64,000 nt of DNA, from NCBI RefSeq assembly GCF_022605165.1, contig NC_063076.1:1-64000 (forward strand), in the 5' to 3' direction. The DNA comes from Purpureocillium takamizusanense. Its lineage: Eukaryota > Ascomycota > Sordariomycetes > Hypocreales > Ophiocordycipitaceae. Positions 1-22,130 of the stretch are shown here, piece after piece (within the stretch, counting starts at the first letter, position 1; the number at the start of each line of letters is the position of its first letter). The notes below the pieces were generated by a model. That model ran no database searches. It was given only the letters and a program-made list of their open reading frames with translations, and was not told where the DNA came from. Both the position numbers and the translations under genes were made by a program.

Positions 1-183
1 TTCAGACCCTAACCCTAACCCTAACCCTAACCCTAACCCTAACCCTAACCCTAACCCTAACCCTAACCCTAACCCTAACCCTAACCCTAACCCTAACCCT
101 AACCCTAACCCTAACCCTAACCCTAACCCTAACCCTAACCCTAACCCTAACCCTAACCCTAACCCTAACCCTAACCCTAACCC
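1..183. repeat. Telomere repeat array (CCCTAA)n
   Basis: Twenty-nine complete CCCTAA units run from base 7 to 180, followed by a partial CCC. Read on the other strand this is TTAGGG, the usual filamentous-fungal telomere repeat. The units are perfect and the first six bases (ttcaga) do not fit the repeat, so the true chromosome end may be slightly trimmed or have an adapter-like residue. The array shows that the window starts at a real chromosome end and that everything in the first tens of kilobases is subtelomeric. Confidence 0.99.
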
Positions 184-2450: not shown

Positions 2451-3610
2451 CTAGAATATTTCTGGTAGATCATGTTCCCCATGCTTATACACCGCATTCT
2501 TCAGCACGACCTGATTCGTCTGCATCCATCCCAAGATCGCCTCCGGGTCTCGACACGTATGCTATGTCAAGGTTAGCTATGCGCCGAAGAGGCAACTGCA
2601 AAGCGCGTCTGCTTGACGAGCCAGGACTCACCACGGTGCTAAAGTCGGGAACTGGGTCTGCATATCCCTTGACCCAATGGTATACAATCAGTGTGGTGTC
2701 GCCGTGGCACATGATGGATTCTCGCAACATGTCCACACAATGGTCTAGAAGTATCAGATCCTGTCTGTATGTGATCCTCTAACATGCCAAGTCAGGTGCG
2801 CTGTTACGTGCATGTCCTCGAAGATACGGCTGTGCGAACCAGCCAGGGTCCGTTTCTTTATAGTGATCGAGGTAGATGAATTTCCGGAGCATGTTCTGCC
2901 AGGGTAAGAGCTACCGTTAGTATCTACCATGTAGCTTGCCAACACCATGGTCGTGGCTCACCAGGCAGTGTATTTGATGAAAGAACCCCAAGCTTGCCAT
3001 GAACCCAACATTCTGGGTCTCGTTAAGACGGACGGCTGTCTCCAGGCGATAGCTTGTGGACGCGCGGGCATCTTCTATCGACACGTTCAGCACGGGGGGA
3101 TAATCTGGCATTGACTCTGGATCCACACGTAGTCAGAAACGATGCCAGAGAGCAAGGTGGCGGACCTTTAGATATTTTGACCAACATACTGCTGCCAGCT
3201 TCTGTGAAACGCCCCCAGGTTAATTCCATCTCGTCCGTTGGGGGGCCACTATATGCACTGCGCCTGAACAGCGATCCATTGAACCGTTGCTCGCGCGGCT
3301 CGAAGTGTGTCCCGTCATCTTCAACAAGTCAGTCTACAATACCGGTACCCAGCCCCAAGTACTTACAGAGACGGAGATGAGACGTATCGGCAAATGTGAG
3401 GCCTCTGCAATCTCCTGATAACTGCAGGTTGTAGCCAACAACACTGCCCATAATGAATGGGATGGCAGTCCCGAGGGCATATAAGAGCCAAGGAAACTTC
3501 GAGGTTGTTGTCAAGTCCGACATCAATTTTTCGCCCTCTTTGCAAGGCAGAAAAGCCTCCTCCTCGGCCTCGGCGATGGGAACATAATCAAATGCCCTGG
3601 GCTTTGGCAT
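2451..3610 (-). CDS. UstYa-family (DUF3328) oxidase-like protein 1
   Basis: Six exons join in frame: 3367-3610, 3190-3318, 2962-3116, 2808-2895, 2632-2744 and 2451-2561, giving 279 residues. All introns are GT-AG and 48-73 nt long. There is a cytosolic N-terminus, one membrane segment at about residues 42-60 (LLYALGTAIPFIMGSVVG), and the two family signature motifs, HQIHC near the end of exon 3 and HAHHC followed by VDMLRESIMC. The exon ending at HQIHCL is a typical intron position for this family. UstYa proteins are membrane-anchored proteins that catalyse oxidative cyclisation in dikaritin peptide pathways; relatives also occur in other secondary-metabolite clusters. The gene is intact as modelled. 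It lies near the candidate precursor at 4539. Confidence 0.85.
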
Positions 3611-4050
3611 CCTGTTCGCCGGAGCAGATCAGATGGTGCAACATATAAATGACTGCCGTTTTCCCCAAGTATGCTGGGATATAACGAGAGTAGACAGGCT
3701 TCAAGGGACTGAGACGATTCAGCTCCAAGATGTGCAAAATGCGTCAGGCCGTATATATAGCAGCCATAGAAATCAGCGTTGCGGATGCTCCTGTTCAACG
3801 CACTCTCCGGTTCCCCGGGCTGCCGTGATTCAACTTAGGGGGCGACGAAACGCCGGCTTGGCTGTTCGTGGATGAATTCGATACTACTACATGTCCCACC
3901 CTATGAGTGAACACTGCAATCTGGCGTACGTATTAACTAGCGTTCTGCTCATTTTAGCTCAGGGTCATTATGTACCCACATAGCTACTAATAATCCATCT
4001 TTGACCGGATCTAAGCGCATGGCCCCCATCTGCATTCTGCAGGGCCTCCT
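3611..4050. other. Intergenic, upstream of UstYa gene 1
   Basis: Promoter side of the minus-strand UstYa gene. No coding region is supported. The 15-bp repeat begins at its right end. Confidence 0.4.
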
Positions 4051-4155
4051 GCAAGGCCTTCATCTGCTAGGCCTCCATCTGCAAGGCCACCACCTGCAAC
4101 GCCACCACCTGCAACGCCACCACCTGCAACGCCACCACCTGCAACGCCACCAAGC
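4051..4155. repeat. 15-bp tandem repeat, about seven units
   Basis: Units of GCAACGCCACCACCT, or close variants, occur at 4051, 4066, 4081, 4096, 4111, 4126 and 4141. Because the unit length is a multiple of three, every frame stays open. The minus frame reads GGVAG/GGLAD pentapeptides in an ORF at 4011-4295, and a plus frame reads HHLQR. No ATG with a signal peptide was found for the minus frame (it opens with GTG), so I do not call a gene. Confidence 0.85.
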
Positions 4156-4538
4156 ACAGCCTCTGTGTGCACGTCCGTCGCGTTGATGTCCTCCTGGTTG
4201 GGGATTTCTCGATTTTTTTTTCGTTGCAACGGCACCACCGAGGTGAGGTTCTGGAGGGCCCAAAGGGTGACTTTGACGCCTAGAGTGAGCAGCACGCGTT
4301 CCTTTGACGCGATAGCTTGTTACAAACGGTTGCTAAGTGTACACCAATCCTTCCGGCGCTTCCCGGTGTATTTGTCAAGCCCTCGGCGACAGATCCGCGA
4401 CGTAGCCGTGGCCCTCTATCAAGGCCATCCCATCTCACCTCTTCCGAGGATCTTGGCATTTGGCATTACTAAAGCTTTTCTTCATACCATCAAACTTTCT
4501 AACTCGAAGCATAACCCTGACCCTTACCAGCAACTAAA
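4156..4538. promoter_or_regulatory. Upstream region of the candidate precursor at 4539
   Basis: About 380 bp between the 15-bp repeat and the start codon. The stretch just before the ATG is pyrimidine-rich with CCAGCAACTAAA directly in front, as is common in fungal 5' leaders. No specific operator can be named. Confidence 0.3.
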
Positions 4539-5000
4539 ATGTACTTCACCAGTCTTTTTACCGGTGCCATCCTGGTCGCAGGCTGTCTCGCCGCTCCCCG
4601 TGCGGCCGAGAACGCAAACGTGATTCATCACTCGATCCCGAATTCCTGTGAGACTGCTACTGACCGTGTATAGGTGGCCAAGTCGGTTGAGATGTCTCCT
4701 CGCGAGTACTGGGCCTTCGCGATCAAGCTCCGTGACGATGACCCCGATAAGATCAAACGCGATGCCGGAGCAGATCTTGCGGCTCGAGAATATTGGGCTT
4801 TTGCAATCAAACTCCGTGACGGTGTTCCTGCAAAGCGTCAAGTGCTCGATTCGCGTTGCGAGCAGGCAGAGGAAGGGATCTACTGCACCTACACCAGTGC
4901 TGACATTGAGGCATATGGAACCGGGCCTCGGCTCCAGGATGGTTGTGTCACCACTGATACGGGAGTATCGTGCTTCTATCCAAACCACAACTTAGGCTGA
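4539..5000 (+). CDS. Candidate RiPP precursor with two REYWAFAIKLRD repeats
   Basis: Modelled as exon 4539-4619 plus exon 4674-5000, 135 residues. The 54-nt intron has an unusual GTGATT donor, a CTGAC branch-like site and a TAG acceptor. The in-frame TAG at 4671 makes some intron necessary. Residues 1-19 are a clear signal peptide (MYFTSLFTGAILVAGCLA). Residues 37-48 and 65-76 are identical REYWAFAIKLRD copies 28 residues apart. Dibasic KR at 55-56 and 81-82 suits Kex2 cleavage after each unit. Across the 12 codons there are seven synonymous and no amino-acid differences, so the peptide is under constraint. The C-terminal part (83-135) has four cysteines and no repeat. UstYa-family genes flank it on both sides. 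The precursor role is inference; a secreted small effector or pheromone-like precursor is the alternative. Confidence 0.6.
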
Positions 5001-5815
5001 GGTACGCCTTTCCGCGCGTTCGACTACTTATGAGCATTTTTCTCACCCAGTCAAGGTGGAATTGGAGCCTCCGGGACACTGCGTGGATTGGGGAATTTCC
5101 AGACTTGCAATGGGATGTGGGCAAACTGCCTACAGACCAGTTGCTGGATTTGAACTTTGTCCTGCCTCTATAGTCACTTTTTATGGCAATATATTCCATG
5201 GCGTTGTATCCCAGAACCAGCTGTGGTGGAGCTATAACAAGTGCGATGCCACATCAAGGCGAAGTATAAGAGGTGGCCTTTACTCAGCTGCAGTCATCCC
5301 CAACCGTCTGTGTGGCGAGAAAACATCTGCATTTGCGCCGTTATGTCGTGGTAACAAACGAGGCATGGAGTTTGCCGGGTCCGCATCCATGCATATGAGC
5401 GAGCATTTTCAGGCGTGAGCTCATGCGGGGAAAGGTTGCATGCACTGCAGTTGCTCAGACACTTATTTTGCCAATTATGATAAGTGTTGGTTGGCCGCGC
5501 AATCATAAGTCCCTTGCAGGGCGGCACAGTTGAGGACTAAGTGTAGGGCCATGTGCCACTACCCTATTATTAACTCTATGTGGCAATATTGACAAATTTC
5601 AAGGAGCCAAGTTCCTGGACCTTGGTCCCAGACTCAAACATGGACTCTCGCCTCATGGCAAAGGGGAGTATAACATGCTGCACTCTTGGTCGCGCAGTCG
5701 TTTTTAGCTAATACGCTCGCCTTCTAGATCTTACGAGGCTTATTCAGCAAACGCTCACAAAGTTCTCGATAAAAGAGGCTATTGCAGGCAGGCTAACCAA
5801 GGGATCTAAGGCGCG
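5001..5815. other. Gap downstream of the precursor, possible Cys-rich coding remnant
   Basis: An open plus frame at 5056-5418 continues with several cysteines, but it has no signal peptide and cannot be spliced to the upstream gene without removing its TGA at 4998. It may be the 3' untranslated region, or a decayed extension of the precursor. The remainder up to 5815 shows nothing recognisable. Confidence 0.35.
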
Positions 5816-6748
5816 ATGCTATGTTTTCGTCGTGCTCTATCCGCCATTAATCACGCGGAAGTCGAGTATCAACATTTGGCATCCGCTGAAGCTGCGCTCT
5901 ACTGTGCACCAAATAGATGGAAACCAAGGTTTATAGCGTTGGGAATTGTCTATCTTCTTACACTGTTAGGCGGAGTAGTTGCTTTCCTATCCGTGTCGCA
6001 ACCACACATATCTGTCATGGCGGGTCAAGCATCACGGACAGATGCCATCTTTGGTGACAGTACGCGGATTGCGAATAATGTCTGGCTCTCGACTGACATG
6101 GAAGCAGTCCCCTTGGAGACAATCGTCTTCACTCCTAATCGGACACAACACGACAGAAGCTTCGAGTCCTCAGCGGCAGCCAACCAAACACAATGGGACA
6201 CGTTGCAGCCACGTACGTACCTTGCGCACCAACTTCTATCCACTTTCTATCTTGCCCACTTTAGCAGAGAATTGTTGACCATCGCTAAAGTTTTAAGCGC
6301 TAGGAGGCGGGGGGTTCATTGCAGTTACCCATCCAAGCGACTACGGCCTTATCGGTGGACTGCCGCTCGAAGAAAATGCTGACGATGGTTCGACACGAGA
6401 AGGTTACGGCATCTCCATGTTTCATCAAATTCATTGTCTGGTAGGTTTTCCCACTACAAATAAGACTCACCGGCCGGCTTACGGCTTACATCTTCGTCAA
6501 AGGTGTCCATCCGCGCTGCTTTCCAATTGGGCACCTCTGATCAACGGCACCTCCACCACTGCTTTGACTACCTTCGCCAGGCAATCATGTGCGCAGGAGA
6601 TACGACCTTGGAGAAGGTAGCAGTGAACACCGATGGTCAAAAAATGCCGGATATTGATGGCTGGGGAACTGCTCATACGTGTAGAAAATGGAGCATGCTT
6701 TTCGATTTTGCTGAGAGTCAAAGGGTCAAGGTTATTGGAGACGACTGA
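5816..6748 (+). CDS. UstYa-family (DUF3328) oxidase-like protein 2
   Basis: Three exons join in frame: 5816-6212, 6304-6440 and 6503-6748, giving 259 residues. The first donor is GTACGT and the acceptor CGCTAG; the second intron is GTAGGT to AAAG. One membrane segment lies at about residues 41-61 (ALGIVYLLTLLGGVVAFLSV). The segment GGGFIAVTHPSDYGL precedes the first motif HQIHC, which is again at an exon end. The second motif is HLHHC followed by FDYLRQAIMCAGDTTLE. The length is normal for the family. It is transcribed in the same direction as the precursor at 4539 and about 0.8 kb downstream of it. The expected role is oxidative crosslinking of a secretory-pathway peptide. Confidence 0.87.
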
Positions 6749-7335
6749 CATGGTAGCGGACGGTTCCCCAATGTATGCTACAGAGGTATAATAAGGGCCA
6801 ATTGCCCTGTGAGCCAAACTTAACGATAACGCCATCAACGAAGTCGCTTACGCCATTGCCCCACGCCCGTCTAGAGAGCCTGGCCACAATATGTGGCAGC
6901 GTCTACGTAAAAGCTATACAGACTTGTTGGTCAGCCTCCACTAAGCTGGCATCAGAAGGCATCACAATCGAGTCGATGTTTTTCTCAGCTGGAGCACGAG
7001 AAGTCGCTACCTTGAAGCTTGCTGCATCCTTGACAGAGTTACCAAGGTCTTAACGTGCGTAAGCCGACTTAATTCGCCAGCAGCCGCTATGGTAACTAAG
7101 TTTTACCCGTGTAGGTAATAGAACTTTTTACGCCCTCTCGCCAGGCTCCTTTTGCTCAGTAGTCGTCTCCATGTTGGCGGCCGCTCTGTACTTTTGTTTG
7201 ACGGGATAATGAGTGCACTGCGGTAGGTAAGGACGGTGAATTGCAGTCAAACACGAGCAGTGCCATAAAGTGTGGGGTTATGTCGCCCGCCTCATTATCG
7301 ACATCGGCTTACTCCTTAAAATAGGCTAAATAGTA
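6749..7335. other. Intergenic gap between convergent UstYa genes
   Basis: Lies between the 3' ends of the plus-strand gene ending at 6748 and the minus-strand gene ending at 7336. No gene is supported. Confidence 0.4.
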
Positions 7336-8103
7336 CTACCCTCTAAATTTGTTTGTAACTGTATCACCTCTTTGCCAGTCCCATGGATCTAGAGGCTGTT
7401 TTTCTGAGGCCTGGGCAACTTCCCACAAAAGATCCGTTTCCCTACACTGGTGCTCGACCCCGATTCCATCTACACCTTGCTTAATAATGCTCCCAGCGTC
7501 GTCTGTATGTAGCCAGGGTGGCTCGATAGTATCATCTCCAGAGCATATAATATACTAAGATAAAACATAAAGCATTAGCAGATATCCAGACCAAATTTTA
7601 TCTGTATACCAGACCTGTGCTAGATATCCAAGGCAGTGTGGTGCGTGACTTTCATGTAGAAATCGCTCAGCCGAGTCGTTTCGACTATTGTAATGGTGTG
7701 AAGCGTTATTGAGCGTGGCGCCCTCGTGGCTAGGGAGCCTTTCTTGTAGCATTGCACGCATAAGAGTTAGGCAATGCAGAGCGTGAAACATTGATATTCC
7801 CATCTTCAGCTCAAAGGTCTCGTTATGCTTGACCATGATGAATCCTTCCTTCTGAGGCAAGAGTGCGGACAACCAGGCACGGTCATTGTCGCGTGATATA
7901 CCCTCCAGAGCTTGAACCTGTCGAAACGCCCGAGAGGTAAGTGGAAGACCATTCAGCTGGCCGGGAGGTTGGATGTCCTGATGCCTGTCCCTGTATATAT
8001 GGAACGCGATGCTCGATTGGCTGTGAAAGAAGGCAACGAGTAACACTAAGCCCAGAGATATAATAGCCGCGGCTGCATTATATCTTGCCCTTGAAGAAGG
8101 CAT
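7336..8103 (-). CDS. UstYa-family (DUF3328) protein 3
   Basis: Two exons, 7615-8103 and 7336-7554, separated by a 60-nt intron (donor GTCTGG, acceptor TTAG), encode 235 residues. The membrane segment is near the N-terminus (about residues 10-27). Motif one is HALHC and motif two HAPHC. The splice restores the classic ending HCLGYLAQ-YIICSGDDTIEPPW, which a single open frame would miss. A further conserved tail (GVEHQCRE) follows. This is the member of the five that looks closest to canonical UstYa itself, whereas the others have divergent C-termini. It is divergently arranged with the next UstYa gene at 8702, sharing a promoter region of about 600 bp. Confidence 0.87.
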
Positions 8104-8701
8104 TTTCGATACTCTAGGAAAGACGAACTATAGGGAAGGGCAAGAGTTGTGGCGTAAGTTGACCTTGTGTCTCAGTGAGGAGGCTTGGAAGAGAGTTGGT
8201 TGAAAAGGCAGCGTATATACTGAAGTGTCGGTCCCAAGCCAGTCTTAGATTTGATCGGTCCGGCTTCTGCAGCTTCGAGTGCGGCCGTGACGGTTACATT
8301 GCGTCTTGGTCAGTGCAGCGGCAGCAAAGGTTCTGAGCGAGGTACCGGATCTAACAGCGCATGCGTAAATAATCACGCACCACCCTTGCCTCTCAATACT
8401 GGAAGAGGTATAGCCAAGTTTTCTTTAAGTACCACAAGTATAAGATACCTTGCTGGTACGTTACCCCGCGAGGCCATTACCTGCCTCCTGAAAATCTTGG
8501 GACGTACGTATATGCCTTATCAATTAGGTGCAAGTTTCGGGTAGCCTCCGTCATATCAATGCAAGCAAATACCAACGTACTCTCCTTCTACATTGTCAGG
8601 CCGCGCCTCTTAATACACGCCTCTTTACCCACCTCACTTCAGATCGTAAGTAAATCACGACATATCTAGTTTTTCTCTTTAAATGCCTGTCTATCCTTGG
8701 T
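8104..8701. promoter_or_regulatory. Shared promoter region between divergent UstYa genes 3 and 4
   Basis: A 598-bp spacer between two divergently transcribed UstYa-family genes. A bidirectional promoter is the simple reading. No specific transcription-factor site is identified, and the small open frame inside (8251-8544) looks accidental. Confidence 0.4.
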
Positions 8702-9679
8702 ATGGATATGAGCATCTTTGCACGCTTTGGCTTCTTGAAACGCGCAGCCTTTGACAACGACGAGGAGCGAGGATCCTTCCTTAGTCGGCGACATGGCGCC
8801 CTATCGAATGATACGCACCCGACAGTCTGGATCAAGTGGCTTCTTGTAGTCTCTTGCAGCATGAACCTGCTTCTATTCTTTACGACGCAGAGTAGGCATA
8901 GCACGTTATCGTCACAGGTGCTATACTGTACGTGCCTATCAATTTCTCATCATGCTTCTAGAATATTAATACCTTACTTAGCTCCAGCGCAAGATGCTGT
9001 CCGTTATAAGATCCAAAAGTTTCACAGAGGATTTGGAGAAGACAAAACGATATACCAAGGGGCGCCTTCCCCGGAAGTGGACGAGGCCTGGAAAGCGCTA
9101 TATGACTGTGCGTTTTCGCATAAAGCCCCTGTTCAAAGTAATTGGAAAGGCGGAAACTGATACACAATGGTCAGCTATTGGTATCATTAGAATCCCAAGG
9201 TCTGAAGCAGAGCGCCTTCCGAACCAGACCTATCCTTTCATAGGAGACAGTGGGTATTATATCGCAGAACTTGCAGTGTTTCATCAGCTTCACTGCCTGG
9301 TAAGTGATAACCCAGTCTTGCCTGGAATCGTCGTTCGTTGATGTCGTTGTAGAATGCTATCCGAATTGGCCTAGCAAGGGCCTACTACGAGAAGGTTTTC
9401 AACCTCAGCGACTTTGACCCCCTTGAAGGCTCCTATGGGAGGGACCATTTGAGCCATTGCTTAGATGCCCTTCGTGAGGCTGTCATGTGTGCCTCGGACA
9501 TCAGCGTCATTACTTGGAAGTGGAACAGCAAGGCTCAGAAATCCCTAGGGCACGGTGATATTGTCCACTCTTGTCGCAGCTTTGAGGATATACGCGATTG
9601 GTCTGCCAGACACAAAGCCACATTGAAATTTGACAACACTGTATTTGTGGAGAACGACCTCATGATCCCCGAATTCTGA
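8702..9679 (+). CDS. UstYa-family (DUF3328) protein 4
   Basis: Four exons join in frame: 8702-8927, 8982-9107, 9175-9299 and 9353-9679, giving 267 residues. A membrane segment lies at about residues 43-61 (WLLVVSCSMNLLLFFTT). Next comes the family-typical luminal segment YQGAPSPEVDEAWKALYD, then HQLHC at the end of exon 3 and HLSHC leading into LDALREAVMCASDISV. The C-terminal HSCRSFEDIRDW is also a recurrent DUF3328 feature. The introns are GTACGT, GTGCGT and GTAAGT types. The gene is intact as modelled, with no missing signature residues. Its tail resembles UstYa proteins 1 and 2 more than protein 3, so the locus carries at least two subtypes. Confidence 0.88.
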
Positions 9680-9802
9680 TATGCTATGCACGTTTATATC
9701 AAGAGAAAGATTCATCAGGCAACATCTATCTAGGGCGTTCCTAAGCAAATAATCTTCTTATGCATTGAATATCGTGCGAATTTGAGCTTTATTGCTTCAA
9801 AA

Positions 9803-11770
9803 CTATGAGGTTGAGGTCTGGGAACAAACGAACCGCAGTATTCGGCTCGTGAGATCCTCAACGTGCTGTCTCTCCCTAAAATAGTGGCCCTCCCTTGGAT
9901 AAATAACAAACTCAAAGGGCACGTCTGCCTCGTCCAAGGCTCGCCGAAAACCGTGTGCTTGTGAGATTGGTACTCGAAGATCCCGTTCTCCATGAAGCAT
10001 AAGCATGGATGGAATTCTACCGTCCCTCAGCGCGTTCTTAAGTTCCCAGAGCGGGGAATCTTGCCGCCCCGTAGTGTCAGACTTTTGCTTTGTCCATGGA
10101 GATCCGCCTGCATGTTCTGCCTGTGAGTATCCGAGGTCAGACACGAGGGTCATGCTGTCCCAGTCTGTGATGCCGGCACCAGCTACAACCCCTCTGTATT
10201 TCCATCCGAAGCCATGAGTGCCGTTGCGAACGGCGGAGAGATATGCAAGGTTGCCACCTTGTGACCAGCCAGCGGCTACCACACGAGTTTTGTCGGTGTA
10301 TCCTAGTTCGATAGCATGCTGGACCATAGCAACGATATCATCATGTGCACCTCCACCACCACATGCGTAATTAGCAAATGTCTCCCCCTTACCACTGCTT
10401 CCACGGTAGTTAGGGATGAGGATGCCGAATCCTTGTAACAAGAGGGATTGTATCAAAATGTAATACGGGTCGAAGATGTCAAATGCGTCAGTGTTGCGAC
10501 AATACGGCCCTCCGTGTATAATGATTAAAGTTGGGAGAGGCGTTTTCGGTCCGCCGTCGCTGGAGCTGTGCTGCCTCGGTACGAGGAATAGGCCATCGAG
10601 TCTCACTTTATCGTCAAGAGACGCGCAACTTAGGAAGCAGCAGTGACCGAACTGCGTACCGGCAAATGCTGCGCCGTGATCTGAGAGTTGCAAGGCGTTT
10701 CCTTCATCCACGGTACAAAACACCTCAGTTGGATGATTCACATCTCCCTCAGAATATACCAAGGCTGTGCGCTGGCTGCAGACAAGATCAAAGTCTACAA
10801 CGCGTTTCTTCTGACAGAGAATGGTTTTCCCACCGAGGAAAAGAAGTCGATCCTCAGGACCGTGTTCAACGTGCACTACAACCTTGCTGCCCGCTGCGGC
10901 AAGATCATGCGCACAATCGACGTCGCCATGAGCTACCTTTTGGTAGTTCCCTTTCTCACTGACCGAGTAGATCGCCGTTCCAGATGTGCCTTCTTCGGGC
11001 TTGTTATTCGCAAGAAAGAAGAGGTCTATACTGGGCCATACCATCTTCCACACTTCTCCAGGGAAGTGACAGACTTGACGGATATGCATCGTCGCCAGCT
11101 CCAGAATCCACAACGTAGTGCCGTAGAGGTATGCACTCTCTGCATGAGGGGTCCGGTGTGTAGTGACAGCAATTTTGCCACCAGTACAGCTCCAAGAAAA
11201 GCCAGTAACGTGGGTGTCTGTTCCAAATGCTGCCCGCGTGGTGCCAGAATCAAGGTCTAACAGCCATAGGTGCGCGCGGTCCCAGTCACGGCCCCAGACA
11301 ATCGCGTCTTCCCCTGCTGCCTCCCTAGCTCGCCTCAGTGGCGACTTCTCGGCGGCTGCCACAAACGCAATGCTTTTCCCGTCGGGGCTGAATTCGAAGG
11401 CTGTGATCTGCGCCTCATTGCTCTGCGGCGTTGTCGCCTTCGGATCAGAATCAGAACCGTCCACACTCACAACATAAATCGCGCACGCACGGCCTTGTGC
11501 ACCACGATCGGACATAAATGCAACATGACGCCCATCTGGCGACCAGCAGGGCATTCGATCGTTGTATGAGCCATCCGTGAGTGGACGCGCCGACTTTTCG
11601 GTTTCTGTCTCGGCGATCCAGATAGCTGCGGTGGTGTATTGCCCCTTTCTGTGGTTCCATTTCAGTCTTGTGGAGTACACCACTTTAGACCCGTCTGGCG
11701 AGAGCTTCAGTGTTGCCGGTACGACAAGATCCAAAGTGTCCTGAATCAAGGCTGTCACTTTCTCAGTCAT
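9803..11770 (-). CDS. S9-family prolyl oligopeptidase / acylaminoacyl-peptidase-like serine peptidase
   Basis: A single-exon gene of 655 residues. The N-terminal half is a beta-propeller-like region with WD40/TolB-type segments (WSPDGRHVAFMSDRG, FEFSPDGKSIAFVAAA). The C-terminal half is an alpha/beta hydrolase: the oxyanion strand region has HGGPY near residue 420, the nucleophile is in GWSQGG (about 501), the acid in GERDLRVP (about 595) and the histidine in EGHYF (about 629). The catalytic triad is complete. There is no signal peptide, so it is expected in the cytosol. Family members release N-terminal residues or cleave after proline in short peptides. Its place among five UstYa genes makes a peptide-trimming or detoxifying role in the pathway possible, but this is inference. 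Confidence 0.85.
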   Translation of the reverse strand: MTEKVTALIQDTLDLVVPATLKLSPDGSKVVYSTRLKWNHRKGQYTTAAIWIAETETEKSARPLTDGSYNDRMPCWSPDGRHVAFMSDRGAQGRACAIYVVSVDGSDSDPKATTPQSNEAQITAFEFSPDGKSIAFVAAAEKSPLRRAREAAGEDAIVWGRDWDRAHLWLLDLDSGTTRAAFGTDTHVTGFSWSCTGGKIAVTTHRTPHAESAYLYGTTLWILELATMHIRQVCHFPGEVWKMVWPSIDLFFLANNKPEEGTSGTAIYSVSEKGNYQKVAHGDVDCAHDLAAAGSKVVVHVEHGPEDRLLFLGGKTILCQKKRVVDFDLVCSQRTALVYSEGDVNHPTEVFCTVDEGNALQLSDHGAAFAGTQFGHCCFLSCASLDDKVRLDGLFLVPRQHSSSDGGPKTPLPTLIIIHGGPYCRNTDAFDIFDPYYILIQSLLLQGFGILIPNYRGSSGKGETFANYACGGGGAHDDIVAMVQHAIELGYTDKTRVVAAGWSQGGNLAYLSAVRNGTHGFGWKYRGVVAGAGITDWDSMTLVSDLGYSQAEHAGGSPWTKQKSDTTGRQDSPLWELKNALRDGRIPSMLMLHGERDLRVPISQAHGFRRALDEADVPFEFVIYPREGHYFRERQHVEDLTSRILRFVCSQTSTS

Positions 11771-13450: not shown

Positions 13451-13532
13451 CATATGGCCGTCTATCAAGGCCGATGGCGCGTGATATTTTCGTGCAAGCG
13501 CCATTAGTCCAGTCGTAAGATGTACACCTCCG

Positions 13533-14098
13533 CTATCCATCTACGCGACACAGCATAGGACGCCCGTGGTGGTCTTCTTCTTCCTTTACGCCGCCGTTCT
13601 GGCTCTCTGGGCTGCAATAAATTGGCACGGCATCTTTCCTATCGGAGGGATCACGAGACCGGTCCGAAGTTGCCATAGCCAGCACTACCAGATATACTTG
13701 TTCTTGCGAGACTCCCTTATACACAGTATCAGAACCATCTCGACTAGACGGCTTATGTTGGCCGTTGCGTTCCAAATCAGGCAAAGGCTCACCTATCATG
13801 GTGAATGGGAACTTGGGTGTGTTGACAGGATAAATGCCGAGATCAACGGTTTCATCTGTGTGTCCAACCTGAACAGGTGATGGTCAGTCAGCTTTCTCAG
13901 TTCGTATGTCCAAACACTATACCTTGGGGAACTTTTGCTTGTCGAGGTAAGCTTGAGCTTGCACTCGGCTGAGACATGAAGAACCAACTGCATCATTACC
14001 GGCATAGATGATCCGTCATAATTCACGGAGCATCTAGGGCCAGGACTGCATGAGTCTCCTAGTTGGGTTGGGTATTGGGTTCTTGCAGTAGCAAGCAT
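13533..14098 (-). CDS. Unrecognised minus-strand gene or gene remnant
   Basis: Coding character is suggested by spliced segments that keep one frame: RIIYAGNDAVGSSC and VQAQAYLDKQKFPK end at a GTATAG donor near 13924. After a CAG acceptor near 13870 the frame continues VGHTDETVDLGIYPVNT up to a GTGAGC donor near 13793. The repeated use of plausible splice signals in one frame argues for a real exon pair. I do not recognise the family. The true 5' and 3' ends are not defined and the gene may be decayed. It lies head to head with the small secreted peptide gene at 14364. Confidence 0.35.
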
Positions 14099-14363
14099 GC
14101 CGCGCGTAAAAGAGCCGTCTAGGAAATACTGGTACTCATCAAGGCTTCAATCGATCCTCATAATACGCAGGCAGCATCAATTCACGCCATGTATGGGCCA
14201 TTGCCGGAGTCACGCAGACACTGGGAAACATTTTCACATAAATGAAGCCTATATCGTTTCAATTTTCCAAAACTGTCCTATAAGAATTACACTTGCTTCT
14301 TCACCACCTTTAAAATTATATTGAGCTTTAAATTCCTTGCCTCTAAGTTTTTCACATATCAAG

Positions 14364-14689
14364 ATGAAGAACATTCTCACTTGGATCATGGTCCTTGAGG
14401 CTGCTTGCATCGGTGTCCTATCCCGTCCACTGACAGAGGGCGTACGTGCTACTGTTGTACGGTATCGCATAAGTGCTAATCGTCGTATAGGAAGCCATTA
14501 ATGTGCTGAGCGGAAACGGAGGTTCGACACCTCAGGCGGACAAGGTGACGCAGCGTGTAAGTTGATATGATATTCCAGTCTGGCTGGCCTGATCTAAATA
14601 TAATATTACAGGATACCGTTGATGTACTCAATGGAAACTCAGGCTGGTCACCTCCAGTAACTCCCAATAATGTACAGAATGGGAATTGA
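14364..14689 (+). CDS. Small secreted peptide gene, one repeat per exon
   Basis: Three exons, 14364-14441, 14491-14556 and 14612-14689, with clean GTACGT/TAG and GTAAGT/CAG introns of 49 and 55 nt, both in phase 0. They encode 73 residues. Exon 1 is a signal peptide (MKNILTWIMVLEAACIGVLS). Exon 2 begins EAINVLSGNGG and exon 3 DTVDVLNGNSGW, so each later exon carries one copy of a diverged unit. A further unit DVVDMLNANS, ending in a stop, lies at 14782-14814 behind an AG acceptor. It would join in phase if the GTACAG at 14672 were used as a donor, giving an alternative C-terminus. No KR site is present, so classic Kex2 processing is not supported. It could be a small effector or an unusual peptide precursor in this UstYa-rich locus. 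Confidence 0.5.
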
Positions 14690-15653
14690 GTCTGGCGGCC
14701 TCCGCTACGAAGGGTGAAATGTTGCGTGAGTCGATCTGAGCTCCCACCTGGTCAAGCTGGTCTTAACGTCAGGCAACATAGGATGTCGTCGATATGCTGA
14801 ATGCAAACTCCTGATGGACGCTTTCTGCGGACAAGGAACTTGCCTTTAACGAGACCGGATAGCTGCGGAAGAAGAAGTATGTTCTAGTTAGTCATAGGCT
14901 GGGTATCTCAAAGCAAACGCTGCGCTCATATCTAGTGGATTAAGATGGCCACTTATTGAGTGCATATACTTAGCTCTTGGCAAGTTCTTTACTTGGATTC
15001 TTGAATTTCAATTTTGATAGTTGAGTGCTTCATGATCTCAAGACTGCTACGAACCAATTTATTCTAGTCAAGCTGCATGCTTTTTGATATAGCGCCAGTG
15101 TGTGCTTCCCCAATCACGTAGCGTTAGATCCTTCCCAATACCTTGCACGAAACCTATCCAAGCAATAATTACAACCGTAAAGCCGCGACTCGAAGAGCTT
15201 AAGCATGACTGGTATTTCTGCTTATGCTGGCTATAATACTAGATATGGCTGGTTCGCGGTTTAGGCATCCTTATGTTGATCATTGATATACCGTGAGAAA
15301 GCTATACATAGCTTAGCGGCTTCGTTAGCATTGAATCCCGCCGCAGTTCTCAGCCCGCCGCCCGCAGCCCGCAGCTCATGCAGCGTTGGCATTTGGCCGA
15401 TCCTACCCATCGGGCAGACAATCAATAATACCACGCAAGGCAGGCACATAACAGGTAGTTACTTTGAAGCCGGTGAGTCTATGTCAGTCAATCCTTTCAA
15501 TCAGAAAAAGGCAGATAGATACGCAGTGATGGTAGTGGATTGTAAATGCATAGGGTTACTACTTCACCTCGACACAACTGGTCTATAGACTATATTTTCA
15601 TCAAGAAGAAACCGCAATACACTCTTCACTCTAGTTCGGGACATTCATCCAGC
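14690..15653. other. Intergenic region with one extra peptide-repeat exon
   Basis: Contains the fourth repeat-like exon (14782-14814) of the preceding gene. The rest is AT-richer sequence with no gene; the right end is the sedolisin promoter. Confidence 0.4.
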
Positions 15654-17525
15654 ATGTTTAAGCATTCTTTACCGCTCCTGGCGCTCACTACTTTCGTACT
15701 CACTACTAACGCCAAGCCCTCGCTGGCAATTTCGGAAGGATGGCCTACGTCTTGGAAGCCTGCAGACGGCGAGATGGACACCTTCACAATCGTATTGACA
15801 ATGCAGAATATCGAGCATCTAGAGTCCATGCTGCTATCAGTCTCAACCCCAGGTGCGAACCTATACGGTCATTATATGGATGTAGAGGAAGTCAACGCTA
15901 TCTTCGCGCCTTCACATGCGGCTATTGAAAGCGTGATTAGTTGGCTACATTCATATAACATTACCGACTATGTTATTGACGGAGCATTCATTGACTTCAG
16001 AGCCAACATCCGTACTGCAGACGCGCTTTTGCATGCATCTTATCGCTACTACAATAGAAGTGGTGACACGAAGCTAGGGACACTCTCCTATTCCATTCCG
16101 GACGATCTCCGAAAGCACGTAGCTCTCGTGTATCCGGGCACCTACTTTAGTGGTGCAAGCACTGCATATACTGGGCCTCTGCAAGAGGAAAGCGATGTCA
16201 AGGCCACCAGAACGTCTGCAGATGAGCCTTGTCAGACATCCATCACGCCACCCTGTCTGAAGTCCATGTATAACGTGGGAGGATATATACCTGATAAACA
16301 GGCTGGCAGCAGGCTCGGTTTTGCGAGCTTTTTAAATCAGTCTGCTATCTACGCCGACCTGCTTCAGTTCGAGGACCAATTCCACATCCAGCCACAAAAT
16401 TTCACGGTAGAAGTCATAGCCGGCGGTATTGACAACCAGAGCACTACACAATTCGCAGAGGCAAACCTGGATGTCCAGACGCTGATCGGCATGGCGCACC
16501 CACTCCCAGTTATAGAATACATAACTGGCGGCTCACCGTAAGTCCTTCTACTTGCGTAATTTCGGGCAAAAGGCTGATCAGATCGAGACCATTCATTCCA
16601 AACATCGATCACAAAACCGCGTCTCGTAACTTCAACGAACCTTGGGTCCCATACTATAGGCATTTGCTATCGAAACCGAATCATGAACTGCCACAGGTGC
16701 TCTCCCACTCCTACGGGGAGCAAGAGGATGTAAATACGACCCCCACTTGTCTCTATCACTGTTGACTGATGCCTTTAGTCCGTTCCGTATGATTACGCAG
16801 TGCTCACCTGTAACCTCGTTGGCTTGATGGGTCTCCGTGGCATTACAATCCTCCAGTCTTCTGGTGACAGCGGTGTCGGGAGTGGCTGTCTTGCACCCGA
16901 CTTCGCTACTGTCGAGTTCTATCCAATCTTCCCGGCGAGCTGCCCATGGTTGACAAGCGTAGGCGGCACTTCCCAAGTGACTCCAGAGAGGGCGTGGGAA
17001 GGCAGTTCGGGAGGTTTCAGCAAGTATTTTTCGCGCCCGGCCTACCAGGATACCGCTGTCGAACAGTATCTTGAGACGGTAGACCCGAAAACTTACGACT
17101 ATTACAAGAATTACACGAACTGGTCAGGCCGCGGCATCCCTGACGTGGCTGCCCACAGCCTCTCCCCGAGCTATCAGGTCGTCTATCGCGGCCAGCTTTC
17201 GAGTAGCGGAGGTACCAGTGCCTCTGCGCCGGTGTGGGCCGCTGTTGTAGCGCTCTTGAACGATGCCCGGCTACGTTCCGGAAAGCCGAGCCTAGGTTGG
17301 CTTAACCCACTGCTATACGCGGTTGGCTATAGGGCTCTCAACGACATTGTGGACGGCTTCACGTTCGGCTGTAACGGTACGAATCCGGGTACCGGGGCAA
17401 AGGAACCAGACGGCGCCGGAATCGTGCCTTGGGCGCAATGGAACGCAACTGTTGGGTGGGATACTACGACAGGCTTCGGAACGCCAGACTTTCAGAAACT
17501 GAAAGACTTGGTTCTCAGCATATGA
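15654..17525 (+). CDS. Secreted sedolisin (S53 serine-carboxyl peptidase), copy 1
   Basis: Three exons, 15654-16537, 16582-16729 and 16779-17525, encode 592 residues. The start at 15654 gives a signal peptide (MFKHSLPLLALTTFVLTTNA); an upstream in-frame start would bury it. A pro-kumamolisin activation domain covers about residues 25-190. The catalytic pair is in FAEANLDVQ (ExxxD), the oxyanion aspartate in SSGDSGVGS, and the serine in GGTSASAPVW. The calcium site uses ALNDIV and GWDTTTGFGT. Introns are GTAAGT/CAG and GTAAAT/TAG. All catalytic residues are present. Sedolisins act as acid endo- or tripeptidyl-peptidases outside the cell. A (CTTCA)n microsatellite directly follows the stop at about 17553-17580. 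Its presence in the peptide locus may be incidental. Confidence 0.9.
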
Positions 17526-19499
17526 GATGCAAGACGCGAATATAAAATCTCACACTTCACTTCACTTCACTTCACTTCACTATACCCTTGGCGTATATTT
17601 ATCCTGAACTCAGATTCACCCAAATATCCCTACCGTGGCGGAGCATTGCTATGGCCAAACTCGTTTCGTGCAAATATACTGCTATGGCGAATGTGTATCT
17701 CATACACTCGACAATAGAGAGCAGCGATATGCTATTGAGTCGCCATGGCGGGCTATGCGCATGACCCTGCCTGTTTCAAGGGGCGAGGTTGCCGCATGTT
17801 CCCATCGGGATGCTGGCCTGAGGAATTCTCTGGTCTGCAGACTACGGGACGATGGCTTGTGCATTTGGTTGGTATAGGGACTCGAGAGACGGGCCCAACG
17901 GCGACTTGTTGACTTAATCATGGCACAGCATCACCACCAGGTTTGAGGTTGCACGCCTACCTGAGCTTCAAAGGGAAGGAATCCGTGGCAACTAGGGACA
18001 CCTGTGGGCGGCTTCATTCGACCTGATTTGAGGCCGAATAAATTGCCGTACAGCTGTGCATCGCGGGTCGCGTGAATTGATGTACGGAATCCCTTGAGCG
18101 GGGAGTGAGGAACCAGCGTTAGCGTCCTCTTTTATTCTCCTTCCTCGTTTGCCTTGGCGGCCGTGGACGTCTCATGCCATGCGCGACTTGTGATGGCGGC
18201 GAAGAGGGGCAAGGGATCAACGAAAGCATTGCTCTACAGCGCAGCGTGCCCCGTTCCTTGGGGAGCACGAGATTGGCGCGATGGCGAACTGCTGTCGCTA
18301 TATCGACTCAGCGGTGAAGATGCATCGTGCCAGGTAAAGGTTCAATGGCTCGTAGGTTGATGCTTTTGTGATGAGGGCCGGTCGCGTCCGACGACGTCGC
18401 GGTCTGCCCACAACATAGAGCATCCATCCTCAGTCGTGAGCCGGGAAGGCTGAGGCAGCGACAAGCGATCGGCTGCGCACTCGTCAGCGGCCATCGTCAG
18501 CGAGTTAGCCGGAGAGCAATATGCCTTATTTTGTGCGAATCTCGCCGGCGTTTGTGACGCTGCAATCCGGACTCGGGGTCGTGTTAGCGATTCAACGACA
18601 TTACTTCCCGGTGTCGCCCTCAGCCCAGGGTAGGAACAACAGCTGCAACACCAGGGCAGGCAGTATCTCACTCGCTCACGATCATGCTTTGCGTCAGGTC
18701 GGGTATGTCGGCCCTGAAGATGACTTGTGAGCGTCGCAGCATGGTCGCGATGGGCGACTCGTTGGTGAACCTGTGTCGTAGCGGCGGTGCAAAGTTTCAG
18801 CGCCCTACTAACCAGAATGGCCTCGCCCATGCTCACAACGACGGCGCTGTGCGTGAGGGCCGTTCACCCGCCGTGCAAACGGTACAAAATTACGCAATGC
18901 GTCGGCTTCGGTCTCATCCCCAACCGCCCAGCGGATGCAGTCATAGTCATGGCGGTTTATTTATGTGAGTGATGCACCCGTGGCTTGTTGGCAAACCTAC
19001 CTTATTATTGGTGTCACGAGCCTTCTCGAGTCCTCGACAATCAGTCGACGACATCATCAAGCTCCCGTGGGCATGAGCAGGCGGCGTTCCTCAGCGGCGG
19101 GCTCATCAACTGGCCAGAGTCAGTCAGAGAGTACTCACTCATTGAGAAATAGATGAGACAGGCAATGGATGACTGCCATCATTTCGAGATGACAAGCGCA
19201 CGCGACCGATGGCTGTGGGAAGGCGCTGGAGCCCATTATTACTGCAGCATGTTGTCCTCTCATCATTCACTCAAGTTACCGAAACGGGCCACACAAGCTA
19301 GGATACTCTCTACCTTTCGTATTGACCTAAGGTTGGAACCTGTAATAAGAGGAATCTAAGCAATACTACATGTTGAATGTAGCATTTTGACCATAGTGCG
19401 TTTTTCGCACTCAGCTGCTTCAAGCAGCTTACCACACGACCTCAACGTAAATCCAATCCTTCATTGCCGCATCCCGGGCTGACTTCGATACAGGTTTAG
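17526..19499. other. Two-kilobase gap, GC-richer, no recognised gene
   Basis: Starts with a short CTTCA microsatellite. Sequence from about 18.1 to 19.1 kb is GC-richer than its neighbours and has open frames on both strands (18342-18836 minus is the longest), but these show no known domain, signal peptide or repeat ends. It could be a decayed transposon or gene; nothing firm is visible. Confidence 0.35.
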
Positions 19500-19987
19500 T
19501 CACTTGGCCTCTGGCTTTGCGGTCCCATCATGCTTATTGTAGCCCCGTCGGCTCCGACTGGCGAGCAAGTCAACCTTGTTCCCATCAGATCTCGGCTCGC
19601 TGGCCTCTTCGCGCTTAGAGTAGTACCAGCCACTGCGGAGAGCATACGAGTCGACCTTGTTGTCGCTGGGCTCTGGAATGTCAACCTCATCGCGCTTGGT
19701 GTAGGTCCAGCCGCTGCGGAGAGCATATGAGTCGACTTTATTGTCGCTGGGCTCTGGCATGTCGGTGTCGCCGCGCTTAGTGTAGTACCAGCCACTACGG
19801 AGAGCATATGAGTCGACTTTATTCTCAGGGTGCCCCTCATACCCCTTGAACTAAACGAGATTAGAACCCAATATCGGACAATGGCCTAAGACTGTATTAG
19901 ACTTACAGGGCTGTCAGGCTTTGGCACTGGCGATGCGACGACCGTAACAGCCATATAGACCACGGAAACCATGCCGATAAACTTCAT
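19500..19987 (-). CDS. Kex2-processed repeat precursor, dikaritin (UstA)-type RiPP candidate
   Basis: Exons 19907-19987 and 19500-19850 are joined by a 56-nt GTAAGT/TTTAG intron in phase 0, giving 143 residues. Residues 1-19 are a signal peptide (MKFIGMVSVVYMAVTVVAS). From residue 37 the protein repeats with an exact 27-residue period (37, 64, 91, 118). Each of the first three units starts NKVDSYALRSGW and ends YYT, TYT or YYS directly before KR, a Kex2 site. The fourth unit is degenerate and lacks KR. Acidic, Pro-containing spacers (PEPSD) separate the units. This layout of signal peptide, equal repeats, aromatic core before KR and variation at the core matches known dikaritin precursors, whose tyrosines are crosslinked by UstYa proteins. 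A UstYa-family gene lies 1.1 kb away. The product structure is unknown. Confidence 0.8.
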
Positions 19988-21135
19988 TGCGACGACTGCC
20001 TGATGATGAATGGTAGCTTAGACGATGTGGAGTGTTTATGACAAATTGTCCGTGAAGTGTGGTCGCGGGACTGTTCTGCCGTTATGCCTCCCTCAAGGGT
20101 GCTGTAGAGTCCTTTTATAGTGCAAGGCACGTTTGAGTATACTATCCTTAGCCGTAGATCAACATCAATGTGAACTAAGTGCCGAAATCTGCCCCGAAAG
20201 GCTATAGACTTCCTCGCTGGAGACTTTTTCAAAATAGTTGACCTGTCAACAAAGGATAATATAGTCGTAATCCACGGACCCCATTACACGCGCAAAGGCA
20301 TTGCCTCACGCTCTTACGAAATCGTAGATAACTTGTCAAAATCTACCGCTGATCTCATCGCTTATAATTTCTGAGTACAACATCTGCCCTAGATATCAGC
20401 TAGATTTACTAACTGTCGATTTTTCTCTTGTCGTATTCCGGAGGCGAGCCGAAGAGTGCCGGATAGACGGCATGTTATGGGAGTAACGTTACTTATATAG
20501 GAAATATGCTAATATATCAGTTCGCTACTATCACAGTCGTGAATTAGTCTCGAGCTTTGGTATACTTAACTCGAACAAGGGAGAGGCGTGGTCTAAGGGC
20601 AGGGTGATGCATCAAATATATTTCACTGAGCCTAGAGAACGCTACGGGCAATAGTCATAGCGAGTCTCATAGCATAGACCACTATGTTACGTGTTGCTTT
20701 AACCATAAAAGCGAATAAGGCACGAGCGGACTTACCTCGGTGATAATCAAGGTCTTGTCAATTACTAGTGTAAGACGCTTAAAGAACAGCCATTTTATTA
20801 TGACACTATTACAGCACGACATCCGATGTCGACTGTAGAAGAGACAACGCAATAGACCGCGCCTAACGCGACGGACTGCATCTCGATCATGGTAATCGTA
20901 AAAGCGTACGGGGGATATTGAAGCACTCTCATTTAGTGAAACCTATCATTCGGGTTCTCATAGATTTCCAGACACCCATTTAATATCACAACTTGCTGGT
21001 GCGCGGAGCGTTGGTGATGCATAACAATCACAGAGGCCAGATGACAAGTTCAAGAATTTACAGACGAACAGATCAATACCGATAGTAGTAATATAGCAAA
21101 TTCAGATCAGTAACTAACTCTGCCAGGCGCCGTGC
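19988..21135. other. Intergenic region between precursor and UstYa gene 5
   Basis: About 1.15 kb of AT-rich sequence holding the precursor promoter at its left and the 3' end of UstYa gene 5 at its right. No gene or repeat is recognised. Confidence 0.4.
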
Positions 21136-22130
21136 TCAATCCCAAACCTCAGCCCCCTCTGGGCGCGTAAAAGGTGGCTGCGTGTGCGCCATATTCTCCG
21201 CTGCCCAGCGTTCAAAGTGGTTCCAGTTTGCGCAGCGATGACTAGTGAAAAGATTGACCCATGCGCCTTTATGACGATTGACCCAGTGATGTGAGTAAAC
21301 ATTTAAATCAGGGTTGCACATCAGCCGCTGTCGTAACATTTCGATGCAATGATCCTTGTGGTGTCGTCGGTCTTCAAGTGTCTCACCGACCATATCGAAG
21401 TCAATTTCCCCGTAGTAATCCATATAGGTATACATTCTAATGTAATTCTGGAGGTGTCAACGGCGTTGTCCGCAAATTGAGGAGCCTAGAGGTTACTTAC
21501 GAGACAGTGTAACTGATGAAAGACCTCCATGCCAACTTGGTATAGACCCGTGCTTTCGAATTGTATAGCGCCGCGGGACCGATTAATAGATTTCAGAATT
21601 GCGCCGTCAATTCCAAAATTTCGTACTATTTCTTCAGTGACTTCACGTTTACGTTATAATGTATAGTGGAATGTGCTTACTTCCTGAAAGTTTGGACCAA
21701 CGAGCATCAATGTCGGTTGTTGGCTCACCCATATATGGTGATGGGTCCCCCGTGAAGTAAGGGTTGAACTCTCTAGTCTCAAACTTGAGACCTGCTCTTG
21801 CTGATGCTAATCAACCCGCACATTAAGTTCCAGGCCGCGTATAATAATAGAGGGCAACTTACGCCAAGCAGTGTCGAAGCAACTTCTCTGGTCGGTAGAT
21901 AGTAGGTCATGGGCAATGAAGCCAGAGATAAATAGTCCGAGACATATCAGGAATGCCCCGAAGGTCTTTAAAGGTCCCCAGGGGCTAAAGACTCCCATCT
22001 GCTCAGCAATACATCGCCGTGACTGGTTATAGAGACGTGAAGGTTTGTTGTTAAGTCCCATCGGTGGACTTTCAAGATCTGATATAGCCTCCGAATCAGT
22101 CTCACTGCTGTGAACTTTGGAGTATTTCAT
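21136..22130 (-). CDS. UstYa-family (DUF3328) protein 5
   Basis: Four exons, 21863-22130, 21681-21806, 21501-21631 and 21136-21447, join in frame for 278 residues. A long cytosolic N-terminus precedes the membrane segment at about residues 56-75 (TFGAFLICLGLFISGFIAHD). The luminal segment TTDIDARWSKLS fits the family consensus. Motif one is HQLHC at the end of exon 3, and motif two is HKDHC followed by IEMLRQRLMCNPDLNVYSHHW. The exon 3 acceptor (GAAG) is weak but keeps the frame. It lies 1.1 kb upstream of the repeat precursor on the same strand, the closest pairing of oxidase and precursor in the window. The retrotransposon begins 0.5 kb beyond its start. Confidence 0.87.

What the first reader, a model, noticed from the sequence alone, without database searches (positions are those of the whole stretch)
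2451..22130. Subtelomeric multi-precursor RiPP locus with five UstYa-family genes
Within 20 kb of the telomere lie five distinct DUF3328 genes, each with a membrane segment and both HxxHC motifs, plus two secreted repeat-bearing precursors with KR sites. Known dikaritin clusters usually have one precursor and one to three UstYa genes. Here no tyrosinase or methyltransferase is visible, while an S9 peptidase and a sedolisin are. The combination of two precursor types and five oxidases suggests either two interleaved pathways or one pathway making several crosslinked peptides. What is seen: the genes and motifs. What is known: UstYa proteins crosslink peptide side chains. What is inferred: that these genes work together.
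Basis: partly seen in the sequence, partly recalled or inferred. Interest (0 to 1): 0.92.

Follow-up and report, generated by a model that had tools for sequence, protein, structure and literature searches.

The report
Subtelomeric UstYa peptide clusters in Purpureocillium
At the end of a chromosome of an insect-infecting fungus lie the genes for at least two probable cross-linked peptides; one gene set has close counterparts in other insect- and fungus-attacking moulds, the other has no relative that was found.

Summary
The window is the telomeric end of scaffold C9 of Purpureocillium takamizusanense. Five intact UstYa genes (PF11807, E 4e-17 to 1.6e-47), each with two HxxHC motifs, lie in 20 kb with two secreted-type precursors bearing KR sites. 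"One to three UstYa genes" is wrong as a rule: phomopsin has five (PMC7329392). (1) U1-PA-U2, probably with U3-U4: PA (two YWAFAIK cores, four-Cys tail) has 13 relatives in the search; PA and U1 relatives bear consecutive locus tags in Cordyceps militaris, U1 and U2 relatives form single gene models in Beauveria, and three promoters share an element found four times in the genome, three of them here (post hoc). (2) PB-U5: a Kex2 repeat precursor without detected relatives beside one UstYa gene, an arrangement seen at 6 of 15 other UstYa places in this genome. Nothing found links the S9 peptidase or sedolisin to either. A known kind of system; I did not find the PA family described in the open-licence papers searched.

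The parts
6..183 (.). telomere repeat (CCCTAA)n, chromosome end
2451..3610 (-). U1, UstYa-family gene, 279 aa; exons 3610-3367, 3318-3190, 3116-2962, 2895-2808, 2744-2632, 2561-2451
   Evidence: PF11807 1.3e-41; relatives at 52-74% in Trichoderma, Beauveria, Cordyceps, Cadophora, Bisporella
4007..4021 (+). shared element GGATCTAA-GCGC-ATG between U1 and PA
4539..5000 (+). PA, precursor, 135 aa; exons 4539-4619, 4674-5000; signal-like start, two cores REYWAFAIKLRD, KR sites, four-Cys C-terminal domain; identical to public protein JDV02_008780
5802..5818 (+). shared element GGATCTAA-G-GCGC-G-ATG, its ATG being the U2 start codon
5816..6748 (+). U2, UstYa-family gene, 259 aa; exons 5816-6212, 6304-6440, 6503-6748
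   Evidence: 6.5e-25; relative in one gene model with the U1 relative in Beauveria
7336..8103 (-). U3, UstYa-family gene, 235 aa; exons 8103-7615, 7554-7336
   Evidence: 4e-17
8347..8363 (+). shared element GGATCTAA-CA-GCGC-ATG between U3 and U4
8702..9679 (+). U4, UstYa-family gene, 267 aa; exons 8702-8927, 8982-9107, 9175-9299, 9353-9679
   Evidence: 1.6e-47
9803..11770 (-). S9 prolyl-oligopeptidase-family protein, 655 aa; link to the cluster not shown
   Evidence: PF00326 1.7e-34
14364..14689 (+). PC, precursor-like gene, 73 aa; exons 14364-14441, 14491-14556, 14612-14689; repeats one per exon; a third repeat unit further on (about 14780) holds a stop; no KR site
15654..17525 (+). sedolisin-type peptidase (Pro-kuma_activ); read as two ORFs (15546-16541 and 16800-17525), introns not modelled; link to the cluster not shown; one of about nine in the genome
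19500..19987 (-). PB, Kex2-type repeat precursor, 143 aa; exons 19987-19907, 19850-19500; three good repeats NKVDSYALRSGW(Y/T)Y(T/S)KR and one degenerate
   Evidence: no relative found, one copy found in the genome
21136..22130 (-). U5, UstYa-family gene, 281 aa; exons 22130-21863, 21806-21681, 21640-21501, 21447-21136
   Evidence: 6.4e-47

Best explanation
Two neighbouring RiPP modules. Module 1 (U1, PA, U2, with U3 and U4): the precursor PA enters the secretory pathway, is cut by Kex2 after its KR pairs, and two copies of a YWAFAIK-centred core are released together with a four-cysteine tail; the UstYa oxidases U1 and U2 (with U3 and U4 as likely further tailors) oxidise the core, most likely cross-linking an aromatic side chain (Tyr or Trp) to another residue, without a tyrosinase. 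Module 2 (PB, U5): a separate precursor with YALRSGWYYT-type cores, handled by U5. Shown here: the genes, motifs, silent divergence of the PA cores, gene-order evidence for U1-PA and U1-U2 in other genera, the shared element. Inferred: secretion, Kex2 cutting, the chemistry, and that U3 and U4 act on PA.
For: PA relatives: 13 proteins besides itself, at 50-79% identity, 6 of them named (Coleophoma crateriformis, Trichoderma virens, T. harzianum, T. compactum, Cordyceps militaris, Beauveria brongniartii); first and second YWAFA core each kept in 13 of 14 rows, KR after the second core in 14 of 14. C. militaris: PA relative CCM_01011 and U1 relative CCM_01012, contig length 6,263,243 for both. 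Beauveria: 3 proteins (P0021, P0022, P0026) join a U1-like half (62, 74, 71%) to a U2-like half (60, 63, 42%; next best U3 at 32-35%); a tree puts the second halves with U2 and U3 and the first halves with U1 and the rest, split supported 100/99. Element GGATCTAA-N0-2-GCGC: 3 in the window against 0.06 expected; the N0-3 form 4 times in the genome, 3 of them here, reversed control 5; shared by the three intergenic regions in 1 of 1500 Markov shuffles, 0 of 150 shuffles for a wider set of forms and 0 of 60 triples of other window stretches. Core selection: 7 silent and no amino-acid change in 12 codons between the PA cores. Module 2: repeat precursors beside UstYa at 6 of 15 other UstYa places of the genome.
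Against: The shared element was found by looking and its form was chosen afterwards; the U2 copy runs into the start codon, an odd place for a binding site; its first eight bases alone also occur 0.5 kb before the sedolisin (15,124) and at 24,035. Against two separate modules: the 11-mer GATACCTTGCT occurs exactly twice in the window, before U3/U4 (8,444) and before U5 (22,256); with one mismatch 4 matches, reached by 3 of 100 shuffles. A single genome gives PA-U1 adjacency, by tag numbers only; Beauveria shows U1-U2 only, and there the single gene model could be a true fusion; where U3 and U4 relatives lie elsewhere is unknown. U1 and U2 flank PA here but are joined in Beauveria. No expression data were examined, and neighbourhoods of relatives could not be read.
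Confidence: 0.63

Rival explanations
1. One pathway with five UstYa oxidases and two precursor types (PA and PB), giving several products.
For: Five DUF3328 genes in one cluster are known for phomopsin (PMC7329392); all genes lie within 22 kb of one telomere; clusters with one or more precursor genes are reported for Venturia inaequalis (PMC9632046, passages); GATACCTTGCT is shared by the U3-U4 and U5 upstream regions.
Against: The GGATCTAA-GCGC element is not upstream of PB or U5; PB has no relative found where PA has 13; 9.8 kb with an S9 peptidase, PC and a sedolisin separates U4 from PB.
Confidence: 0.19
2. Three modules: PA with U1 and U2; U3 and U4 with PC (now decaying); PB with U5. It differs from the best explanation only in where U3 and U4 belong, so the two probabilities overlap.
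For: U2 and U3 form one subtype and U1, U4, U5 the other, so U1+U2 and U4+U3 would each be a mixed pair, like UstYa and UstYb (such pairs: PMC12048977, passages); U3 and U4 are divergent around one 598-base region.
Against: The same rare element lies before U1/PA, U2 and U3/U4; PC lies 4.7 kb beyond U4 behind the S9 gene; PC has no KR site.
Confidence: 0.25
3. PA is an unmodified secreted peptide signal; the UstYa genes nearby serve other substrates.
For: PA is conserved between genera and carries a conserved Cys-rich tail; about 78% of Kex2-repeat proteins have no UstYa neighbour (from the 22% that do, PMC7329392).
Against: A U1 relative bears the next tag in Cordyceps, and PA and U1 relatives turn up in the same genera Trichoderma, Beauveria and Cordyceps; mating factors almost never have UstYa neighbours (PMC7329392).
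Confidence: 0.12

Closest known systems
Phomopsin cluster (Phomopsis leptostromiformis)
   Same: secreted repeat precursor with KR sites and five DUF3328 genes (PMC7329392 and PMC6514808, passages)
   Different: tyrosinase and methyltransferase act in it, and S41 peptidases mark its cluster type (PMC6514808, passages); no Pfam match to these here
Asperipin-2a cluster (Aspergillus flavus)
   Same: no tyrosinase or methyltransferase in its four genes; one UstYa-type protein, AprY, is needed and proposed to do the cyclisations (PMC6514808, passages)
   Different: one UstYa gene, plus a transporter and an isoflavone-reductase-like gene; neither of the latter found here
Kex2-processed repeat proteins with DUF3328 neighbours (survey PMC7329392)
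   Same: PB-U5 and six other places of this genome fit the pattern; the survey gives 1.7 DUF3328 genes per such precursor on average
   Different: PA has two cores and a conserved four-Cys tail and is kept across genera, whereas the survey calls repeat sequences highly diverse; whether PA is in that survey was not seen
Epichloecyclins (gigA, Epichloe)
   Same: multi-core Kex2-type precursor in an ascomycete (PMC9233826, passages)
   Different: no gigA sequence was compared here

Membership tests
Dikaritin, strict definition of Ding et al. as told in PMC12048977 (passages) | precursor with N-terminal leader and repeated core | tested here: met
   PA and PB; leader judged by hydropathy only
Dikaritin, strict definition of Ding et al. 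as told in PMC12048977 (passages) | tyrosinase in the cluster | tested here: not met
   no PF00264 row on C9 among 10; none in the six-frame scan
Dikaritin, strict definition of Ding et al. as told in PMC12048977 (passages) | methyltransferase in the cluster | tested here: not met
   none in the six-frame Pfam scan of 1-22.8 kb
Dikaritin, strict definition of Ding et al. as told in PMC12048977 (passages) | multiple DUF3328 proteins | tested here: met
   five
Dikaritin, strict definition of Ding et al. as told in PMC12048977 (passages) | transporter or peptidase | tested here: inconclusive
   S9 and sedolisin genes lie between, nothing ties them to the pathway; no transporter found
Dikaritin, later definition by the class-defining enzyme (as told in PMC12048977) | DUF3328/UstYa protein with two HxxHC motifs | tested here: met
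   five of five
Dikaritin, later definition by the class-defining enzyme (as told in PMC12048977) | cross-linked or otherwise oxidised peptide product | not testable with these tools
   needs LC-MS
Kex2-processed repeat protein (PA, PB) | signal peptide and repeats separated by Kex2 sites | tested here: met
   PB with three good repeats and one degenerate, PA with two; signal judged by hydropathy only; the survey's minimum repeat number was looked for and not seen
Kex2-processed repeat protein (PC) | Kex2 sites between repeats | tested here: not met
   no KR or RR in PC

The most novel reading that the evidence does not exclude
PA founds a new family of fungal RiPP precursors: a conserved two-core precursor with a cysteine-rich follower domain that is itself conserved (a second, disulfide-bonded peptide or a recognition domain for the oxidases), processed by a dedicated U1-U2 oxidase pair without tyrosinase, kept from Hypocreales to Leotiomycetes (classes recalled) and therefore more likely a conserved signal than a variable toxin.
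Probability: 0.45. Interest if true: 0.68.

Novelty: new variant of a known kind. Interest (0 to 1): 0.52.

Why it matters
Only five dikaritins had been reported by 2022 (PMC10512285, passages). A precursor whose core is nearly the same in insect pathogens, Trichoderma and Coleophoma, with relatives of the same oxidases, is a tractable target: the product could be sought in the well-studied Cordyceps militaris, Beauveria and Trichoderma. It would also test whether UstYa enzymes, with no tyrosinase gene nearby, can work on a Trp-containing core.

Tried and rejected
'Recent tandem duplication of the five UstYa genes': rejected, they are only 22-34% identical over the aligned parts. 'Sedolisin as cluster peptidase': not supported; I count about nine such genes from 11 rows across the genome, a second one in the window at 34,825-36,549. 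'PC as an active third precursor': not supported; repeat units two and three run into stops and there is no KR site. Short shared words before the seven U and P genes other than PC: at k=8 the best count, 4 of 7, is reached in 7 of 100 shuffles, at k=9 a count of 3 in 25 of 100, at k=10 a count of 3 in 3 of 100, and overlapping upstream regions count double; this is where the element came from. GATACCTTGCT: weak, see the Against line. ACCGGATCTAA: with two mismatches at chance (14 against 14.9); exact, 4 in the genome with 2 here, reversed control 3. Longer similarity between the intergenic regions of the cluster: one 18-base match of weak score (E 0.88) between the U1-PA and S9-PC regions, none among the three with the element. 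Literature: core strings and tags of PA relatives not found (0 papers); CCM_01012 and CCM_01010 not found, Beauveria tags in one paper. The original victorin and phomopsin papers are not held, so statements on phomopsin rest on passages of later papers.

Full report
WHAT THE WINDOW IS. The window is scaffold C9, bases 1-64,000, of a 35.57 Mb genome in 14 contigs. The PA protein matches at 100% identity and coverage a protein of Purpureocillium takamizusanense, JDV02_008780, on a 2,226,199-base contig, the length of C9. The genome paper (PMC9302088, whole text) gives 35.6 Mb, 14 scaffolds, strain PT3 from a cicada. The telomere repeat is at 6-183; an AT-rich block with RIP-like dinucleotide ratios starts near 22-23 kb and ends near 28.5 kb, so the finding fills the stretch between telomere and AT-rich block.

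THE OBSERVATION. All five UstYa genes are there and open. I modelled their introns by hand with GT-AG sites and got proteins of 279, 259, 235, 267 and 281 aa, all above the PF11807 cut-off, each with two HxxHC motifs, one C..D motif and a hydrophobic stretch. My PA model equals the public annotation. PB and U1 did not return themselves from a database that holds this genome's PA, so they seem not to be annotated there in this form. A six-frame Pfam scan of 1-22.8 kb found only UstYa, the S9 peptidase, the sedolisin and a phosphomethylpyrimidine-kinase-like gene near the telomere: no tyrosinase, methyltransferase, transporter, P450 or transcription factor (single short exons could be missed; U3 was below the threshold in this scan as a separate hit but is clear when spliced). 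Tyrosinase has 10 match rows in the genome, none on C9.

NOT UNUSUAL IN NUMBER. Three UstYa homologues of phomopsin are needed for cyclisation and desaturation (PMC10512285, passages). Venturia inaequalis has nine clusters, each with one or more precursor genes (PMC9632046, passages). In this genome I count 24 UstYa genes from the 35 match rows: five here and 19 at 15 other places. I scanned eight 10-kb regions (seven other places within them plus the subtelomere of C2) and otherwise only the 3-3.7 kb match loci for repeat precursors. Strong repeats (score 36 or more, with KR or KK after the core) lie beside UstYa at 6 of the 15 other places: C4:2.80M, C5:0.58M, C9:0.42M, C9:0.59M, C12:0.26M, C14:0.04M. 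C2:0.07M gave a weak case (score 15); C1:1.93M and C9:0.87M gave none in 10 kb; C2:6k gave only a low-complexity repeat without KR; the remaining five were read only to about 1.5 kb on each side and gave none. As a rough background, the same scan over the window beyond 24 kb gave two hits, scores 10 and 11.

MODULE 1: U1-PA-U2, WITH U3-U4. PA has 13 relatives besides itself in the protein search: six named (Coleophoma crateriformis; Trichoderma virens, harzianum, compactum; Cordyceps militaris; Beauveria brongniartii) and seven without a name. In the alignment A1, 13 of 14 rows keep the first YWAFA core and 13 of 14 the second, and the four cysteines of the tail are kept (two invariant, two in at least 90% of rows). 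Some rows are fragments or odd gene models: P0010 lacks part of the tail, P0013 is displaced there, P0014 lost the first core and P0009 the second; none was dropped before counting. The two cores of the window's PA differ at 7 of 12 codons, every change silent; random placement of as many changes never gave that in 50,000 trials, so the peptide itself is under selection. U1's 19 rows are Trichoderma (4), Beauveria (7), C. militaris, Cadophora and Bisporella, all at 52-74%, and Zasmidium plus four unnamed rows at 27-49%. Gene order: in C. militaris the PA relative is CCM_01011 and the U1 relative CCM_01012, on contigs of the same length. Three of the seven Beauveria rows are single annotated proteins whose second half is a U2 relative (60, 63 and 42% to U2; next best 32-35% to U3); these are either adjacent genes merged by gene prediction or true fusions. 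The other four Beauveria rows are too short for that; I read the sequence of one of them (P0019). A tree separates U2, U3 and the Beauveria second halves from all others at 100/99; the placing of U3, U4 and U5 is unsure because of long branches.

SHARED PROMOTER ELEMENT. GGATCTAA-N0-2-GCGC, followed in all three cases by N0-1-ATG, occurs at 4007 (between U1 and PA), 5802 (running into the U2 start codon) and 8347 (between U3 and U4): 3 in the window against 0.06 expected. In the genome the N0-3 form occurs 4 times, 3 of them here; the reversed control occurs 5 times. A composite of this form shared by the three intergenic regions arose in 1 of 1500 Markov shuffles; a wider family of forms in 0 of 150 shuffles and in 0 of 60 triples of other window stretches. 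This is post hoc: I chose the regions and the form after seeing the match in a word count whose own statistics were weak. The three regions share no longer similarity. The full element is nowhere else in the window, hence not upstream of PB, U5, PC, S9 or the sedolisin; GGATCTAA alone lies 0.5 kb before the sedolisin. Against this division, the 11-mer GATACCTTGCT is shared by the U3-U4 and U5 upstream regions (3 of 100 shuffles reach the count with one mismatch). I take the element as moderate evidence that U3 and U4 belong with PA.

MODULE 2: PB-U5, AND PC. PB is a typical Kex2-type repeat precursor: three good 27-residue repeats, each with KR after the core, and one degenerate. Repeats 1 and 2 differ by 5 bases and one residue in the 17-residue core part, but by 7 bases and four residues in the 10-residue spacer. 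No relative was found at E 1 or better among 215 candidates, and one copy was found in the genome. U5 lies 1.1 kb away. PC, between the modules, starts like a secreted protein; its repeats sit one per exon, and units two and three run into stop codons. It has no KR site, and looks like a decaying precursor; one copy was found in the genome.

HOW IT LIKELY WORKS. From the literature: UstYa/UstYb homologues carry out the cyclisation of Kex2-released cores (PMC9233826, PMC6514808, passages); for asperipin-2a one such protein is proposed to do the cyclisations in a cluster without tyrosinase (PMC6514808). By analogy, U1 and U2 act on the YWAFAIK core of PA; Tyr and Trp are invariant in the first core in 14 of 14 rows and are the likely sites of oxidation. 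The role of the four-Cys tail is open: follower for enzyme binding, or a second secreted peptide. The membrane anchor is judged from hydropathy. All of this paragraph's application to the window is inference.

EXPRESSION LEAD. [quoted passage not shown] 'Tat pathway signal sequence' is also the name on some U1 relatives, but I could not establish that these tags are U1 or U2 relatives.

VERDICT. Real, and of a known kind, with one part, the PA-U1-U2 set, that I did not find described (searches, open-licence papers only).

Noticed in passing
G000 C1:1,930,691-1,933,263 (L042): A tyrosinase match lies about 1.2 kb from a UstYa match: a more classical dikaritin-type place elsewhere in this genome; no repeat precursor found in the 10 kb read.
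   Followed up: partly
L040 (C5:573000-582999), 4520-5101: Secreted-type precursor with six repeats SEAQSPD(I/V)LYNNQAGWGKR between two UstYa genes.
   Followed up: partly
L041 (C9:418500-428499), 2667-3389: ORF with 15 repeats of AEPDRHQAYIKR type near two UstYa matches.
   Followed up: partly
L038 (C2:1-10000): A second telomere end (repeats at 3-140) with two UstYa matches at 5.9-7.9 kb; the second is the closest own-genome match of U3 outside the window among the loci searched (31%).
   Followed up: partly
window 22,700-28,500: AT-rich block (about 28-32% GC from 23 to 28 kb) with RIP-like dinucleotide ratios (TpA/ApT 1.6-1.8) bounding the cluster.
   Followed up: partly
window 472-1300, minus strand: Phosphomethylpyrimidine-kinase-like gene next to the telomere; completeness not checked.
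   Followed up: no
window 4049-4152: 15-base tandem repeat array inside the U1-PA intergenic region.
   Followed up: no
window 34,825-36,549: Second sedolisin gene, one ORF of 574 aa, beyond the AT-rich block.
   Followed up: no
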